Positions 10,108 through 59,605 of a DNA stretch of 64,000 bases are shown one piece after another. The stretch's first letter is position 1, and the number at the start of each line of letters is the position of its first letter. The notes under the pieces are model-generated. The model was not told the origin of the DNA, did no database searches, and was given only the letters and a program-made list of their open reading frames with translations. A program made the translations under genes and the position numbers. This DNA is from Kushneria avicenniae (GTDB lineage: Bacteria > Pseudomonadota > Gammaproteobacteria > Pseudomonadales > Halomonadaceae). Where the stretch lies: NCBI RefSeq assembly GCF_900112585.1, contig NZ_FOLY01000009.1, positions 1-64,000 on the forward strand, in the 5' to 3' direction.

Positions 10108-11019
10108 ATGCCGGGCACAGGATACGACAACGGCCCCGCGGTGGTTGGTCGCTTTGCGCCAACGCCCTCGGGGCCTTTGCATTTCGGGTCGCTTCTGGCG
10201 GCACTTGCCAGCTGGCTTGACGCTCGCGCCCGAGGTGGGCGCTGGCTGCTGCGTATCGAGGATATTGACCCGCCCCGCTGCCCGACCGGTGCCAGCGATA
10301 CCATTCTTGAACAGCTCGACGCCTTCGGCCTTGTCTGGGACGGCCCTGTCGAATATCAGCACGATCACGACACTGATTACCAGAAGGCACTGGCATCGCT
10401 CACGGCACAGAACCTGGCCTACCCCTGCAGCTGTACGAGAAAGGAGTGGCAACACTCGAGTATCTATCCGGGCTGGTGTCGCCACGGGTCAGGGCATCCC
10501 GAACGGGACTGTGCCTGGCGCCTGCGTACCGACCTCGGCGAGCCGGAAATCTGCTGGCAGGACAGACGGCTGGGGCAGCAGTGCTGGTCACTGCCGGCGC
10601 TGGGCGATGTCGTACTCAAGCGACGTGACGGCCTCTGGGCCTATCAGCTGGCCGTCGTGGTCGACGATGCTCGCCAAGGCATCACGGATATTGTTCGCGG
10701 CGCCGACCTGCTCGACAACACCCCCTGGCAGATTCGACTGCAGCAGGCACTGGGCTACCCAACGCCGGCCTATCTGCATTTGCCGCTGGTCATCGCCGGC
10801 AATGGCCAGAAACTTTCCAAGCAGAATCTGGCCCCCGCACTCCCCTGCCAGGATCACGCCGTTCGCCCGTTGCTGCACGAAGCACTGACACTGCTGGGAC
10901 AGTCTCCAGCGTCCGATCTGCGTCATGCCAGCGTGTTCGAACAGCTGAAAGCCGCCATCAATCACTGGCAGCCTCATAATTTGTCCATGCAGGATGTTCA
11001 GCGCACGACATCAAAATGA
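10108..11019 (+). CDS. gluQ: Glutamyl-Q tRNA(Asp) synthetase
   Basis: A truncated GluRS-like enzyme that attaches glutamate to queuosine-34 of tRNA-Asp. The N-terminal Rossmann domain has the HIGH-like PSGPLHFGS at about residues 20-28. Zinc-binding cysteines occur in CSCTRKEW and GWCRHG, and a KMSKS-like GQKLSKQN lies near residue 235. The anticodon-binding domain of GluRS is missing, as is normal for the family (303 aa). The ATG follows the dksA stop codon immediately, so it is probably coupled to dksA. Confidence 0.94.
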   Translation: MPGTGYDNGPAVVGRFAPTPSGPLHFGSLLAALASWLDARARGGRWLLRIEDIDPPRCPTGASDTILEQLDAFGLVWDGPVEYQHDHDTDYQKALASLTAQNLAYPCSCTRKEWQHSSIYPGWCRHGSGHPERDCAWRLRTDLGEPEICWQDRRLGQQCWSLPALGDVVLKRRDGLWAYQLAVVVDDARQGITDIVRGADLLDNTPWQIRLQQALGYPTPAYLHLPLVIAGNGQKLSKQNLAPALPCQDHAVRPLLHEALTLLGQSPASDLRHASVFEQLKAAINHWQPHNLSMQDVQRTTSK

Positions 11020-11026
11020 CCTATAT

Positions 11027-11047
11027 CGACCATCGTCGTCTTTTTTT
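11027..11047 (+). terminator. Weak candidate terminator after gluQ
   Basis: A 4-bp stem (11027-11030 with 11035-11038) with a 4-nt loop is followed by TC and seven T. The T-run is convincing but the stem is short. Confidence 0.35.
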
Positions 11048-11087
11048 ACGTCATATTGCGCGTATGCTGACCCTAGCCAACAAGGAC

Positions 11088-11138
11088 AGTGCACTAATAA
11101 AAGGCATTAGCGCATCATTTCTGCACTACGTAAGTGCA
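11088..11138 (+). promoter_or_regulatory. Palindromic upstream sites (candidate enhancer for a sigma-54 activator)
   Basis: Two related palindromes: AGTGCACT at 11088-11095, and TGCACT-N5-AGTGCA at 11122-11138. They lie about 125-175 bp upstream of the predicted start of the CrcZ-like RNA. That is the range used by sigma-54 enhancer-binding proteins such as CbrB. An AT-rich stretch (about 11208-11234) lies between them and the promoter and could bend. Which protein binds is inference. Confidence 0.5.
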
Positions 11139-11235
11139 ATAGAAGATATGACGTATTTTTTCTTCGTCTCCACTGATGCCGCGCAGCACTCGTAAAAACA
11201 GGCAGCCTTTTGAAAATAAAAGTTATTTTTTAATG

Positions 11236-11251
11236 TGGCACGTATTCTGCT
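11236..11251 (+). promoter_or_regulatory. Sigma-54 (RpoN) -24/-12 promoter of the CrcZ-like RNA
   Basis: TGGCACgtattCTGCT has GG at -25/-24 (11237-11238) and GC at -13/-12 (11249-11250) with exact sigma-54 spacing. The consensus is TGGCAC-N5-TTGCA. It predicts transcription from about 11262. crcZ in Pseudomonas is transcribed from an RpoN promoter activated by CbrB. Confidence 0.8.
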
Positions 11252-11302
11252 CCAACCAAAGCGACTGAAGAAGAATAAAACCGATCGCACGTGCCGGCCA
11301 CC

Positions 11303-11620
11303 AACAAGAACAACAACGGTCAGGCATCGATCAGACAGCCTGTCACAACAACAATAAACAAGGCATGTCATGAACATGCTGGTTGTCAGGGCCCGAATAA
11401 CAACAACAGGGGGCTGGCAACACTGGAGGCGCCAACAACAACAATAATCGCCTCCCGCTCTCGGAATACGATGTCCCTGCAGTGGTTGTACGACAACAAC
11501 AACATAACCCTGCGACACTCCAGAACAACAACAAGATCACTGGAGCAGCCCTATGGCTGTCGTCATGGAAGATTGTTTTGAATACGAGATGTTCACAGCC
11601 GTCAGAACACAACAACAAGA
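11303..11620 (+). repeat. Seven AACAACAA-type CA-motif clusters
   Basis: The clusters are at 11303-11317, 11345-11361, 11396-11408, 11434-11448, 11493-11507, 11524-11536 and 11607-11620. Flanking complementary arms include 11425-11431/11449-11455 (7 bp), 11518-11523/11540-11545 (6 bp), 11598-11602/11625-11629 (5 bp) and 11479-11487/11506-11513 (8 bp with a bulged T). Spacing between clusters is irregular (about 30-85 nt), so this is not a tandem repeat or CRISPR. Confidence 0.9.
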
Positions 11621-11704
11621 CACCACGGCATGATGACTTTGGTGAACATGGTACGTATTCAGGGCGATGCGCCATCACGAAAAAATCATAATAAAGCACG
11701 ATTG

Positions 11705-11732
11705 CGGGGAGACGAATTGTCTCCCCGTTTTT
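11705..11732 (+). terminator. Intrinsic terminator of the CrcZ-like RNA
   Basis: A 9-bp stem (11705-11713 with 11719-11727) with a GAATT loop is followed by TTTTT. It ends the small RNA about 165 bp before pcnB. Confidence 0.92.
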
Positions 11733-11765
11733 ATTGCCGGACATCGGGTTGTATGACAGCCTGCT

Positions 11766-11897: not shown

Positions 11898-13238
11898 TTG
11901 ACGCCCACCATTCTTCCTCGTGATCAACACCCCATTTCCCGGCGAATGCTCAGCGACAATGCGCTGAAGGTACTCTATCGCCTTAACCAGGCGGGCTTTG
12001 AAGCCTATCTTGTCGGGGGGTGCGTCAGAGATTCCCTGCTCGGGCAGGTTCCCAAGGATTTCGATGTGGCGACCAACGCCACCCCGGAGCAGGTTCGCGG
12101 CGTCTTTCGCAACGCCCGTTTGATCGGCCGCCGCTTTCGCATTGTTCATGTCCGCTTTGGCCGTGAAATCATTGAGGTCACCACCTTCCGCGGTGGCCAT
12201 GACAACGACCAGGCCGATCGCCATTCGCATCAGTCCGAAGAGGGACTGCTGCTGCGCGACAACGTCTGGGGCAGCGTCGACGAGGATGCCCTGCGCCGCG
12301 ACTTTACCGTCAACGCGCTCTATTACAGCGTCCGCGACTTTGCCATTCATGACTGGACCGGCGGCCTGGAGGATCTCGAGCATCGCGTGCTGCGTCTGAT
12401 CGGCGATCCCGATCTTCGCTATCGTGAAGACCCGGTGCGCATGCTTCGTGCCGTTCGCTTTGCCAGCAAGCTGGATTTCACCCTGGCCGCCGAGACCGAA
12501 GCGCCGCTTGAAACCTGTGCGCCGCTGCTGCTGCAGATTCCACCGGCGCGACTGTTTGAAGAGGTCCTCAAGCTGTTTCTCTCCGGTCATGCCCTGAGCA
12601 CCTTCCATGCGCTAAGGCGTCACGGCCTTTTTGCCATGCTGTTTCCGGGCACCGAGGAGTCGTTTGATCAATTGGACTGGGCGCTGCCCATGGTCGAACA
12701 GGCACTGATCAATACTGATGAGCGCATTCGGGCCGACAAGCCGGTGACACCGGCCTTTTTATATGCCGCACTGCTCTGGCCGGCCACGGTGGCGCAGACC
12801 GCCCGGCTGATCGAGGACGGCATCCCGCCGGTGCCGGCAGCCCAGCAGGCCTCTCAGCAGGAACTCAATCGGCAGCTGCAGCATACGTCCATTCCGAAAC
12901 GTTTCAGCCTGCCCATGCGTGAAATCTGGGACATGCAGCTGATGCTGCCGCGCCGACGAGGCAAACGTCCGTTCCAGACACTGGCACATCAACGCTTTCG
13001 CGCCGCCTATGATTTCCTGCTGCTCAGAGAATCCGCCGGCGAGATTGCTTCCGGTCTGGGGCAGTGGTGGACGCGCTTTCAGGACGCCAGCGAAAGCCAG
13101 CAGCGCGAAATGGTGCAAAAGGTCGAGCAGGGGCACGACGATGCTGCCATCGATGACGATGCGCCCGAGAGCATGCCCATGCCGACCCGTAAACCCAGAC
13201 GTCGTCGGCGCCGCCGCCCCAGGGATCAGCAGGAGTGA
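11898..13238 (+). CDS. pcnB: Poly(A) polymerase I
   Basis: Adds 3' poly(A) tails that mark RNAs for decay. The class II nucleotidyltransferase core YLVGGCVRDSLLG and DFDVAT lies at about residues 33-55, and the RNA-binding domain follows. The C-terminus is very basic (PRRRRRRRPRD), as usual. A TTG start at 11898 is chosen: the frame is closed by a stop at 11844, no ATG/GTG precedes, and the conserved RDQHPISR block lies before the first internal ATG at 11946. Its stop overlaps the folK GTG start. The pcnB-folK-panB-panC order matches Pseudomonas. Confidence 0.93.
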   Translation: MTPTILPRDQHPISRRMLSDNALKVLYRLNQAGFEAYLVGGCVRDSLLGQVPKDFDVATNATPEQVRGVFRNARLIGRRFRIVHVRFGREIIEVTTFRGGHDNDQADRHSHQSEEGLLLRDNVWGSVDEDALRRDFTVNALYYSVRDFAIHDWTGGLEDLEHRVLRLIGDPDLRYREDPVRMLRAVRFASKLDFTLAAETEAPLETCAPLLLQIPPARLFEEVLKLFLSGHALSTFHALRRHGLFAMLFPGTEESFDQLDWALPMVEQALINTDERIRADKPVTPAFLYAALLWPATVAQTARLIEDGIPPVPAAQQASQQELNRQLQHTSIPKRFSLPMREIWDMQLMLPRRRGKRPFQTLAHQRFRAAYDFLLLRESAGEIASGLGQWWTRFQDASESQQREMVQKVEQGHDDAAIDDDAPESMPMPTRKPRRRRRRRPRDQQE

Positions 13239-55326: not shown

Positions 55327-55708
55327 GGGGGCGTTCTGGATTCGACGCCGGTTGCAGATCCTGAGGTGCATGCCGAGAGCGTAACGTATCTCGTAAATCC
55401 CACGTTACTTTAAAATAGTCGCAAACGACGAAAACTATGCTCAAGAGGGCGCGCTGGCAGCATAAACCCTGCTGGTAACCTTCTTACCCCGAAGCGATGT
55501 GCCTGTTCATCGTGACGGGGCTACGAGCTAAAGCTGACAGGATCGCGATTGATTTTGTTCTCGCGTCAATTGCTAAACATTAGAGAGCCCGTTGCATCGG
55601 ATCCTGCTCGTCGGAGCCGATGCGGTTGAATCAAAAGACGAAACTAAGCATGTAGAGCTGATGGACGAGTGCCGGCGGACGGGGGTTCAACTCCCCCCGC
55701 CTCCACCA
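55327..55708 (+). ncRNA. ssrA: tmRNA (transfer-messenger RNA)
   Basis: One-piece tmRNA, about 382 nt. The 5' end (GGGGGCG at 55327) pairs with CGCCTCC before the encoded CCA at 55706-55708. The tRNA-like T-arm (GGGGGTTCAACTCCCCC) and the 5' TTCTGGATTCGACG are conserved. The internal frame at 55421-55465 encodes the degradation tag. It rescues stalled ribosomes with SmpB. tmRNA 3' ends are common integration sites. Confidence 0.96.
55421..55465 (+). other. tmRNA proteolysis-tag reading frame
   Basis: The resume codon GCA at 55421 begins ANDENYAQEGALAA followed by TAA. The ANDENYA start and the ALAA end match the gammaproteobacterial tag recognised by ClpXP and related proteases. This tag is four residues longer than E. 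coli's ANDENYALAA. Confidence 0.92.
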
Positions 55709-59009: not shown

Positions 59010-59047
59010 TTAAAAACAAAAAGGGAGCTGCCGATGGCAGCTCCCTT
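59010..59047 (-). terminator. Terminator of the cold-shock gene
   Basis: A 12-bp stem (59021-59032 with 59036-59047) is followed on the minus strand by TTTTTGTTTTT. Confidence 0.9.
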
Positions 59048-59071
59048 TACAGCAGAATTTAATCTACCGGA

Positions 59072-59275
59072 TTACTCGGGGCGAATGGCCGAGGCCTGCA
59101 GACCTTTCTTGCCCTGAGTGACGTTGAAGGAGACCTTCTGGCCTTCCTGCAGCGATTTGAAACCTTCTGCCTGAATTTCGGAGAAGTGTGCGAACAGATC
59201 GTCGCCACCATCATCAGGAGAGATGAAACCGAAACCCTTGCTGTCGTTGAACCACTTAACAGTGCCAGTTGCCAT
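59072..59275 (-). CDS. Cold-shock domain protein (CspA family)
   Basis: A single 67-aa cold-shock domain with RNP1 KGFGFISP and RNP2 DLFAHFS, and the N-terminus [14 protein letters not shown]. It binds single-stranded nucleic acid and acts as an RNA chaperone. Which paralogue (cspA, cspD or other) cannot be told from this window. It is preceded by a long gene-free region, as expected for a regulated 5' UTR. Confidence 0.94.
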
Positions 59276-59605
59276 GCTTTTGATACCTGTGCAATAAATT
59301 AATGATGGTTAGCCCCCAGCGGGCAGGAACAAGATAGCCATTCATATGCTCTCGACAGGATCGATTACAACTGACGATATACTGCCTTGTTAACCACCTC
59401 GGTCCATAGTGCACCTATCCCCCCACCCGGTCAAGTGGCCCTTTAGTAGGAAGTATAAAACGCACATCACGGGGTCTGCAGCCGACATGGTGGTCTGCTG
59501 AGGTAACAAATAAAGGGGCTCGGAAGACAGCAGATGCTTCTCTGTCTGAGACAGCAGGAGGGCTGCAGCAAGGTGGCATGAGTATTCGGCGGCTGACAGA
59601 GAGGC
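59276..59605 (-). other. Gene-free region upstream of the cold-shock gene
   Basis: About 330 bp without a supportable gene. The part next to the csp start probably holds its promoter and a leader; TTAACA-N18-TGTAAT on the minus strand near 59365-59395 is a possible promoter. I see no clear cold-box. The remainder shows nothing distinctive. Confidence 0.4.

What the first reader, a model, noticed from the sequence alone, without database searches (positions are those of the whole stretch)
11236..11733. CrcZ-like small RNA in a Halomonadaceae-type genome
Seen: a sigma-54 promoter with exact -24/-12 spacing, about 470 nt without a credible gene, seven AACAACAA-type clusters and a strong terminator, directly upstream of pcnB-folK-panB-panC. 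Known: Pseudomonas CrcZ sits at this position, is RpoN/CbrB-driven and titrates Hfq/Crc. Inference: this is a functional CrcZ counterpart that would relieve carbon catabolite repression. I know of no described CrcZ in Halomonadaceae but cannot search.
Basis: partly seen in the sequence, partly recalled or inferred. Interest (0 to 1): 0.93.

Follow-up and report, generated by a model that had tools for sequence, protein, structure and literature searches.

The report
Nitrogen-wired CrcZ-type decoy RNA
The salt-loving bacterium Kushneria carries a conserved stretch, studded with AACAACAA repeats and coding for no protein, that is predicted to yield a folded RNA that mops up the Hfq/Crc repressor of nutrient-uptake genes, and because this genome lacks CbrB, the carbon-sensing activator of the Pseudomonas counterpart CrcZ, it likely answers to the nitrogen regulator NtrC instead.

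Summary
In detail: sigma-54 -24/-12 element at 11236-11251, seven AACAACAA clusters (9 matches, all 9 of the 64-kb window, 9 of 83 in the genome), terminator at 11704-11728, between gluQ and pcnB. The reading is partly right. It is very probably a CrcZ-type Hfq/Crc decoy: Crc, a near-Pseudomonas Hfq and RpoN are present, RNA and promoter are conserved across Halomonadaceae, and 9 of 72 other AACAACAA places lie just before start codons, all 9 of uptake genes. It cannot be CbrB-driven: no CbrA or CbrB orthologue was found in this genome, and the CbrB site pair TGTTAC/GTAACA, present in 33 of 33 cbrB-bearing Halomonadaceae loci, occurs in 0 of 20 cbrB-less ones. Two NtrC-type boxes 32 bp apart stand there instead; in this genome such pairs beside sigma-54 elements mark glnA, an ammonium-transporter gene, a GntR/racemase cluster and this gene. 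A 3' hairpin domain with covarying pairs is shared by Halomonadaceae and was not detected in Pseudomonas loci; Rfam CrcZ scores 14 bits (cut-off 95). Papers read confine CbrAB-CrcZ to Pseudomonadaceae; I find cbrB-crcZ-like-pcnB more widely. New variant of a known kind. Transcription, Hfq binding and NtrC control remain untested.

The parts
11090..11106 (+). NtrC-type box 1, TGCACTAATAAAAGGCA (10 of 12 palindrome positions), -146 from the -24 element
   Evidence: consensus TGCACCAnnnTGGTGCA in PMC8743547 (passage)
11122..11138 (+). NtrC-type box 2, TGCACTACGTAAGTGCA (12 of 12), -114 from the -24 element, 32 bp from box 1
11236..11251 (+). sigma-54 -24/-12 promoter element TGGCAC-N5-CTGCT
11262..11733 (+). 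CrcZ-type non-coding RNA gene (start inferred about 11 nt after the -12 element; not measured)
11303..11317 (+). A-rich cluster 1
11347..11354 (+). A-rich cluster 2
11399..11406 (+). A-rich cluster 3
11425..11455 (+). 7-bp hairpin whose loop carries A-rich cluster 4 (11434-11444)
   Evidence: z -3.88
11495..11502 (+). A-rich cluster 5
11518..11545 (+). 6-bp hairpin whose loop carries A-rich cluster 6 (11524-11534)
   Evidence: z -3.73
11560..11680 (+). 3' structured domain: helices 11560-11568/11672-11680, 11572-11586/11654-11668, 11589-11596/11642-11649, with A-rich cluster 7 (11611-11618) in its apical region
11704..11733 (+). intrinsic terminator (stem-loop 11704-11728 and T tract)
10108..11019 (+). 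gluQ, upstream neighbour; in cbrA/cbrB-bearing relatives the cbr genes lie between gluQ and the RNA
11898..13238 (+). pcnB, downstream neighbour (longest reading of the start codon)

Best explanation
This is a conserved stretch with seven AACAACAA clusters, no surviving reading frame and a 3' domain whose paired bases covary, and it is likely transcribed from its sigma-54 element as a ~470-nt RNA, predicted to titrate Hfq/Crc off uptake-gene mRNAs like Pseudomonas CrcZ and, in a genome where no CbrB orthologue was found, likely switched on by NtrC. Shown by sequence: the clusters, the promoter element, structure-preserving substitutions, the presence of Hfq, Crc, RpoN and NtrB/NtrC genes, no CbrA/CbrB orthologue and no CbrB site pair, and two boxes matching the NtrC consensus. 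Inferred: under nitrogen shortage phosphorylated NtrC binds the two boxes, contacts RNA polymerase-sigma-54, the RNA accumulates, its A-rich loops occupy the distal face of Hfq (with Crc), and mRNAs with AACAACAA at the ribosome-binding site (ABC, TRAP, BCCT, SSS and permease genes) are freed for translation. In most cbrB-bearing Halomonadaceae examined the same promoter carries CbrB sites interleaved with NtrC-like half sites, so dual carbon/nitrogen control is the probable earlier state and Kushneria would have kept the nitrogen arm.
For: A-rich clusters; 448 sense against 30 antisense AAYAAYAA-type matches over 57 loci. Promoter element kept with and without cbrB. No reading frame. Structure: 31 pairs, 96.0% of cells paired against 27-49% when slid, covariation 0.161 against 0.110 (0 of 500 shuffles reach it) in 50 sequences; whole RNA z -5.56. 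Crc: best solved relative P. aeruginosa Crc 4jg3, E 4e-72, a match in 161 of 161 family genomes; Hfq: best relative P. aeruginosa Hfq, E 2e-39; RpoN; NtrC and NtrB above NCBIfam cut-off. Targets: 9 of 72 other AACAACAA places within 45 nt upstream of a sense ATG with Shine-Dalgarno, 1 of 72 on the antisense strand; all 9 uptake proteins by Pfam. CbrB orthologue in 6 of 6 cbrB-bearing and 0 of 10 cbrB-less genomes searched (one of the 6 is the query's own genome); CbrA full length in 2 of 16, not in G000. CbrB site pair: 33 of 33 cbrB+ loci, 0 of 20 cbrB- loci. NtrC: strict box exact at 3 places in the genome, among them this gene and upstream of ntrB; paired half-boxes at 7 places, 4 of them beside strong sigma-54 elements: this gene, glnA, an ammonium transporter, a GntR/racemase cluster; chance of 4 of 7 of order 1e-7.
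Against: No expression or binding data of any kind. The Rfam CrcZ model does not reach its cut-off in the window nor in any of 8 relatives. NtrC dyads beyond shuffles are mainly a Kushneria feature (best-site p at most 0.017 in 10 of 10 Kushneria loci); in the 10 other cbrB-less loci p is 0.02-0.72, while 6 of 33 cbrB-bearing loci also reach p at most 0.033. Paired half-boxes are not more numerous than the same pattern read backwards (7 against 10); only their company with sigma-54 elements is unusual. The GCACYA half site also stands in 26 of 27 cbrB-bearing loci outside three genera, so it might belong to another factor. The genome has 6 matches to CbrB-type regulators. One cbrB-less genus (L159) lacks the repeats at the locus while its genome keeps a Crc match, so the RNA is dispensable in some lineage. 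The 3' domain alone folds only modestly better than shuffles (z -2.45).
Confidence: 0.68

Rival explanations
1. A CrcZ-type Hfq/Crc decoy driven by sigma-54 but by another NtrC-family activator than NtrC (an orphan or cross-talking CbrB-like paralogue), the TGCAC boxes serving that factor.
For: Six CbrB-type matches in the genome; the half site is also present in most cbrB-bearing loci; boxes outside Kushneria are weak.
Against: The boxes fit the published NtrC consensus and the same paired layout lies before glnA and an ammonium-transporter gene in this genome.
Confidence: 0.2
2. Canonical CrcZ: RpoN/CbrB-driven, answering to poor carbon sources.
For: Same locus and promoter layout as Pseudomonas.
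Against: No CbrB or full-length CbrA found genome-wide; no CbrB site pair.
Confidence: 0.03
3. A structured 5' leader controlling pcnB rather than a free RNA.
For: It lies directly upstream of pcnB in the family loci examined.
Against: Terminator kept in Kushneria and ending about 165 nt before the longest pcnB frame; the distance from the last repeat to pcnB varies from about 250 to 790 bases.
Confidence: 0.05
4. A decaying relic of CrcZ left after cbrAB loss.
For: Activator genes absent; one related genus lacks the repeats altogether (L159).
Against: Promoter element, clusters and paired helices are kept in Kushneria, with changes on both sides of pairs.
Confidence: 0.03

Closest known systems
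CrcZ of Pseudomonas (Rfam RF01675) and CrcY/CrcX
   Same: Locus before pcnB, sigma-54 promoter element, several A-rich Hfq distal-face motifs, ~400-470 nt
   Different: Below the Rfam cut-off (14.3 of 95 bits); no CbrA/CbrB and no CbrB site pair; NtrC-type boxes instead; a 3' hairpin domain not found in the Pseudomonas loci searched
CbrAB-CrcZ-Hfq/Crc circuit (review PMC8871633, passages read)
   Same: Output side: Hfq, Crc, decoy RNA, A-rich motifs before uptake-gene start codons
   Different: Input side CbrA-CbrB not found; the review calls the synteny unique to Pseudomonadaceae
NtrC/sigma-54 nitrogen regulon (glnA, amtB; PMC8743547 and PMC4987338, passages read)
   Same: Paired 17-bp boxes about three helical turns apart, upstream of a -24/-12 element
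   Different: Here the driven gene would be a protein-titrating RNA, not a nitrogen-assimilation gene

Membership tests
Rfam RF01675 CrcZ | covariance-model score at or above 95 bits | tested here: not met
   14.3 bits in the window; no gathering-level hit in the window nor in 8 Halomonadaceae loci; in the order survey only 11 of 244 genomes pass
CrcZ-type RNA (functional class) | position directly upstream of pcnB | tested here: met
CrcZ-type RNA (functional class) | sigma-54 promoter | tested here: met
   sequence and conservation only; activity not measured
CrcZ-type RNA (functional class) | multiple A-rich Hfq distal-face motifs | tested here: met
   7 clusters; six A-rich stretches in P. 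aeruginosa CrcZ per PMC4063720 (passages)
CrcZ-type RNA (functional class) | activation by CbrB through TGTTAC/GTAACA subsites | tested here: not met
   subsites from PMC6296734 (passages)
CrcZ-type RNA (functional class) | binds and titrates Hfq (with Crc) and relieves repression | not testable with these tools
   partners present; binding not measured
NtrC regulon member | paired NtrC boxes upstream of a sigma-54 promoter | tested here: met
NtrC regulon member | expression depends on NtrC and nitrogen supply | not testable with these tools
   no expression data

The most novel reading that the evidence does not exclude
An Hfq/Crc decoy RNA that has changed masters: in Halomonadaceae the crcZ-like promoter carries interleaved CbrB and NtrC-type sites, and in the Kushneria/Salinicola-type lineages CbrA, CbrB and the CbrB sites vanished together while RNA, sigma-54 promoter and NtrC-type boxes stayed, turning the global carbon-repression valve into a nitrogen-starvation switch.
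Probability: 0.55. Interest if true: 0.85.

Novelty: new variant of a known kind. Interest (0 to 1): 0.74.

Why it matters
It would extend the CbrAB-CrcZ-Hfq/Crc circuit, which the papers I read confine to Pseudomonadaceae, across Halomonadaceae and several marine gammaproteobacterial groups (Halomonadaceae include industrial PHA and ectoine producers, recalled). The loss of cbrAB together with its binding sites is a rare, directly testable case of a global RNA valve swapping its input signal, here probably from carbon to nitrogen.

Tried and rejected
Small-protein reading: sense and antisense frames do not survive in relatives. pcnB leader: terminator and variable spacing speak against it. 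Other Rfam families: STnc240, DapZ and mir-338 matches lie far below their cut-offs. The best CbrB match in the genome (46-47%) is NtrC beside NtrB (NCBIfam). The best CbrA match in the genome covers only query residues 35-518 at 35% identity, in a 1325-aa open frame; matches of that kind occur in relatives too, so it is not CbrA. A second spot of three AACAACAA at C16:1039-1475 lies among coding frames without a sigma-54 element. The glyA-upstream palindrome (L170) has no sigma-54 element. IHF-like site: at about -33 in 16 of 20 cbrB-less and 27 of 33 cbrB-bearing loci (loose, recalled pattern; shuffles expect about 2 in each set), but not in the window. The tree of 54 loci does not resolve whether cbrB was lost once or up to three times. 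A hairpin around cluster 5 is no better than shuffles.

Rows dropped: of 57 loci (56 fetched plus the window) 4 (L152, L159, L160, L161) were left out of the promoter counts because no confident promoter or no repeat cluster was set; 50 of 57 entered the 3'-domain alignment, the other 7 were searched separately (5 match, L157 and L159 do not). The 56 loci are a choice of mine from 160 genomes with a pcnB match, two to six per genus or all of Kushneria; genera g114 and g130 were not fetched. In the target count, start codons other than ATG, frames under 100 aa and two overlapping matches were left out; 74 matches lie outside this gene, 72 stretches were examined. The proteins behind the nine target sites were read only as far as the fetched stretch reached.

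Full report
WHAT IS THERE. The window comes from a Kushneria genome (PcnB 94% identical to K. indalinina; the window is contig C9 of a 3.6-Mb, 16-contig assembly). Between gluQ (10108-11019) and pcnB (11898-13238; both above NCBIfam cut-off) lie a sigma-54 -24/-12 element at 11236-11251, seven AACAACAA clusters at 11309-11618 (9 matches, none elsewhere in the window; shuffles mean 0.65) and a terminator at 11704-11728. In the whole genome AACAACAA occurs 83 times, 9 of them here. The sense and antisense frames tested are not kept in Kushneria relatives.

CONSERVATION. I took the stretch before pcnB from 56 further genomes of the family, chosen from 160 with a pcnB match, and from 80 named loci of genome contigs (the best 80 of 146). 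Three or more AAYAAYAA matches stand before pcnB in 56 of 57 family loci (median 8; none in L159; 448 sense against 30 antisense matches in all). They also stand there in the named Terasakiispira, Motiliproteus, Microbulbifer, Gilvimarinus and Pseudomonas-type loci and, more sparsely, in Marinomonas (L056, L064 and L069 had none). A leader similar to AAGAAAAACAA (up to 2 substitutions) follows the promoter in 52 of 53 loci.

STRUCTURE. The RNA 11262-11733 folds at -149.2 kcal/mol, z -5.56. Two A-rich clusters sit in the loops of 6-7-bp hairpins. A 3' domain (11560-11680; alone z -2.45) has three helices; on 50 sequences 96.0% of pair cells are standard (27-49% when one strand is slid), six pairs change on both sides, and the covariation score is reached by 0 of 500 shuffles (the tool warns that relatedness can inflate this). 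The middle helix is nearly invariant, so its support comes from one-sided changes. A covariance model of this domain finds 17 of 17 named Kushneria, Salinicola and Cobetia loci and the window at 105-128 bits, Terasakiispira at 51 bits, and no other of the 93 sources on the + strand at E below 1, so none of the Pseudomonas, Marinomonas, Microbulbifer or Gilvimarinus loci searched. Genus g113 matches at 60-64 bits over the core, L116 at 96 bits, L157 and L159 not at all. Since the model was built from family sequences, their matches are partly by construction.

PARTNERS. The genome has one Hfq, closest to P. aeruginosa Hfq (E 2e-39); one Crc-like protein, closest to P. aeruginosa Crc 4jg3 (E 4e-72), with a match in 161 of 161 family genomes; RpoN; and NtrC and NtrB side by side.

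LIKELY TARGETS. Of 72 AACAACAA stretches outside this gene, 9 have the motif within 45 nt upstream of a sense ATG with a Shine-Dalgarno motif and 2 just inside a frame; on the antisense strand the numbers are 1 and 2. All 9 upstream cases precede uptake proteins by Pfam: TctC, two extracellular solute-binding proteins (one polyamine-like by NCBIfam), a sugar-type periplasmic protein, a dipeptide-type ABC ATPase, an amino-acid permease (ethanolamine-permease-like), BCCT, TRAP DctM and a sodium:solute symporter (NCBIfam scores are below cut-off because the stretches cut the proteins). This is the pattern expected of Hfq/Crc targets (A-rich motif at the ribosome-binding site, PMC4063720, passages), and it is independent of the RNA gene itself.

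THE ACTIVATOR. In Pseudomonas the order is gluQ-cbrA-cbrB-crcZ-pcnB. Among 57 family loci, 29 have cbrA and cbrB (one, L138, only a 148-aa cbrA match), 7 have cbrB alone, 21 have neither. Genome-wide, CbrB orthologues (65-100%) appear in 6 of 6 cbrB-bearing genomes searched (one being the query's own) and in 0 of 10 cbrB-less ones, whose best matches are NtrC-family paralogues at 44-46% (46-47% with the Pseudomonas query in the Kushneria genomes). Full-length CbrA appears only in the 2 genomes with both genes, out of 16. The published CbrB subsites TGTTAC and GTAACA (PMC6296734, passages) stand together upstream of the -24 element in 33 of 33 cbrB-bearing loci, mostly at -125 and -80, and never as a pair in 20 cbrB-less loci (2 carry one subsite, as chance predicts). 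Gene and sites went together.

What stands there instead is TGCACTAATAAAAGGCA and TGCACTACGTAAGTGCA, 32 bp apart. The NtrC consensus is TGCACCAnnnTGGTGCA (PMC8743547, passage). A strict version of the box occurs exactly at three places in the genome: here, upstream of ntrB, and before glyA. Paired half-boxes occur at 7 places; the reversed control pattern occurs 10 times, so the number is not remarkable. But 4 of the 7 lie 67-169 bp from a strong sigma-54 element, and these four elements precede this gene, glnA, an ammonium-transporter gene, and a GntR / Asp-Glu-hydantoin-racemase cluster beside a cytosine/purine/allantoin-type permease. Of the other three, two lie inside long frames (L187, L191) and one directly before a thiG gene (L189), none with a sigma-54 element within 260 bp. 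From the density of such elements in 357,506 scored positions the chance of 4 of 7 is 4e-8 for an 85-200 bp interval, somewhat more for the wider one. GCACYA stands at -150 to -122 in 18 of 20 cbrB-less loci, 26 of 27 cbrB-bearing loci of most genera, and 0 of 6 of genera g2, g113 and g128. In the non-Halomonadaceae loci whose promoter the script could set, half sites appear singly in 8 loci at varying places. So the NtrC-type site is probably older than the cbrB loss and abuts or overlaps the CbrB site in many Halomonadaceae; dyads beyond shuffles are mainly a Kushneria feature.

MECHANISM (inferred beyond the sequence facts). Nitrogen shortage, NtrC phosphorylation, sigma-54 transcription of the RNA, Hfq/Crc titration by A-rich loops, translation of uptake genes. 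A nitrogen-controlled decoy would make sense because several of these substrates carry nitrogen. I give the decoy function about 0.9 and NtrC control about 0.65-0.7.

RELATION TO WHAT IS KNOWN. It works like CrcZ but is not a member of Rfam RF01675 as defined (14.3 of 95 bits) and lacks CbrB control, so I file it as a new variant. Literature (CC-licensed PMC library only): the papers listed (lists capped: 40 of 68, 20 of 21, 15 of 360, 12 of 13; judged by title and start of abstract, passages read in fourteen papers in all) include none that I recognise as describing CrcZ or CbrAB in Halomonadaceae or direct NtrC control of crcZ. The two papers naming both CrcZ and Halomonas do so incidentally. 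PMC8871633 (passages) calls the synteny unique to Pseudomonadaceae; PMC6296734 (abstract) says exclusive of the Pseudomonads. One possible precedent: in P. stutzeri A1501 most ncRNAs of a set that includes CrcZ fell in ntrC or rpoN mutants (PMC6606865, passage); the passage does not single out CrcZ. PMC8871633 also reports overlapping CbrB and NtrC sites at hutU, a similar interleaving at another promoter.

VERDICT. Observation confirmed; interpretation right about the class of RNA, wrong about its driver. Interest 0.74.

Noticed in passing
window 11047-11056 and 11146-11155: A perfect 10-bp inverted repeat (TACGTCATAT / ATATGACGTA) brackets the two NtrC-type boxes; the right arm is not kept in other Kushneria.
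   Followed up: partly
L119, L124-L126, L131, L132, L140 (Halomonadaceae) and Marinomonas loci: cbrB without cbrA at the locus; in the four such Halomonadaceae genomes searched no full-length CbrA was found anywhere, so CbrB looks like an orphan regulator there.
   Followed up: partly
L159 (genus g125): A cbrB-less genus without gluQ and without the A-rich repeats at this locus, though its genome keeps a Crc match.
   Followed up: no
L032, L033, L049 (Gilvimarinus): CrcZ-like stretch with 17-22 AAYAAYAA matches before pcnB behind cbrA-cbrB, more than in the Pseudomonas loci.
   Followed up: no
window 59018-59346 (-): Rfam cspA thermoregulator match above cut-off (82.3 of 78 bits).
   Followed up: no
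window 55327-55708 (+): tmRNA gene.
   Followed up: no
L170 (own genome C12:52654): Exact TGCAC palindrome before a serine hydroxymethyltransferase gene without a sigma-54 element; owner unknown.
   Followed up: no
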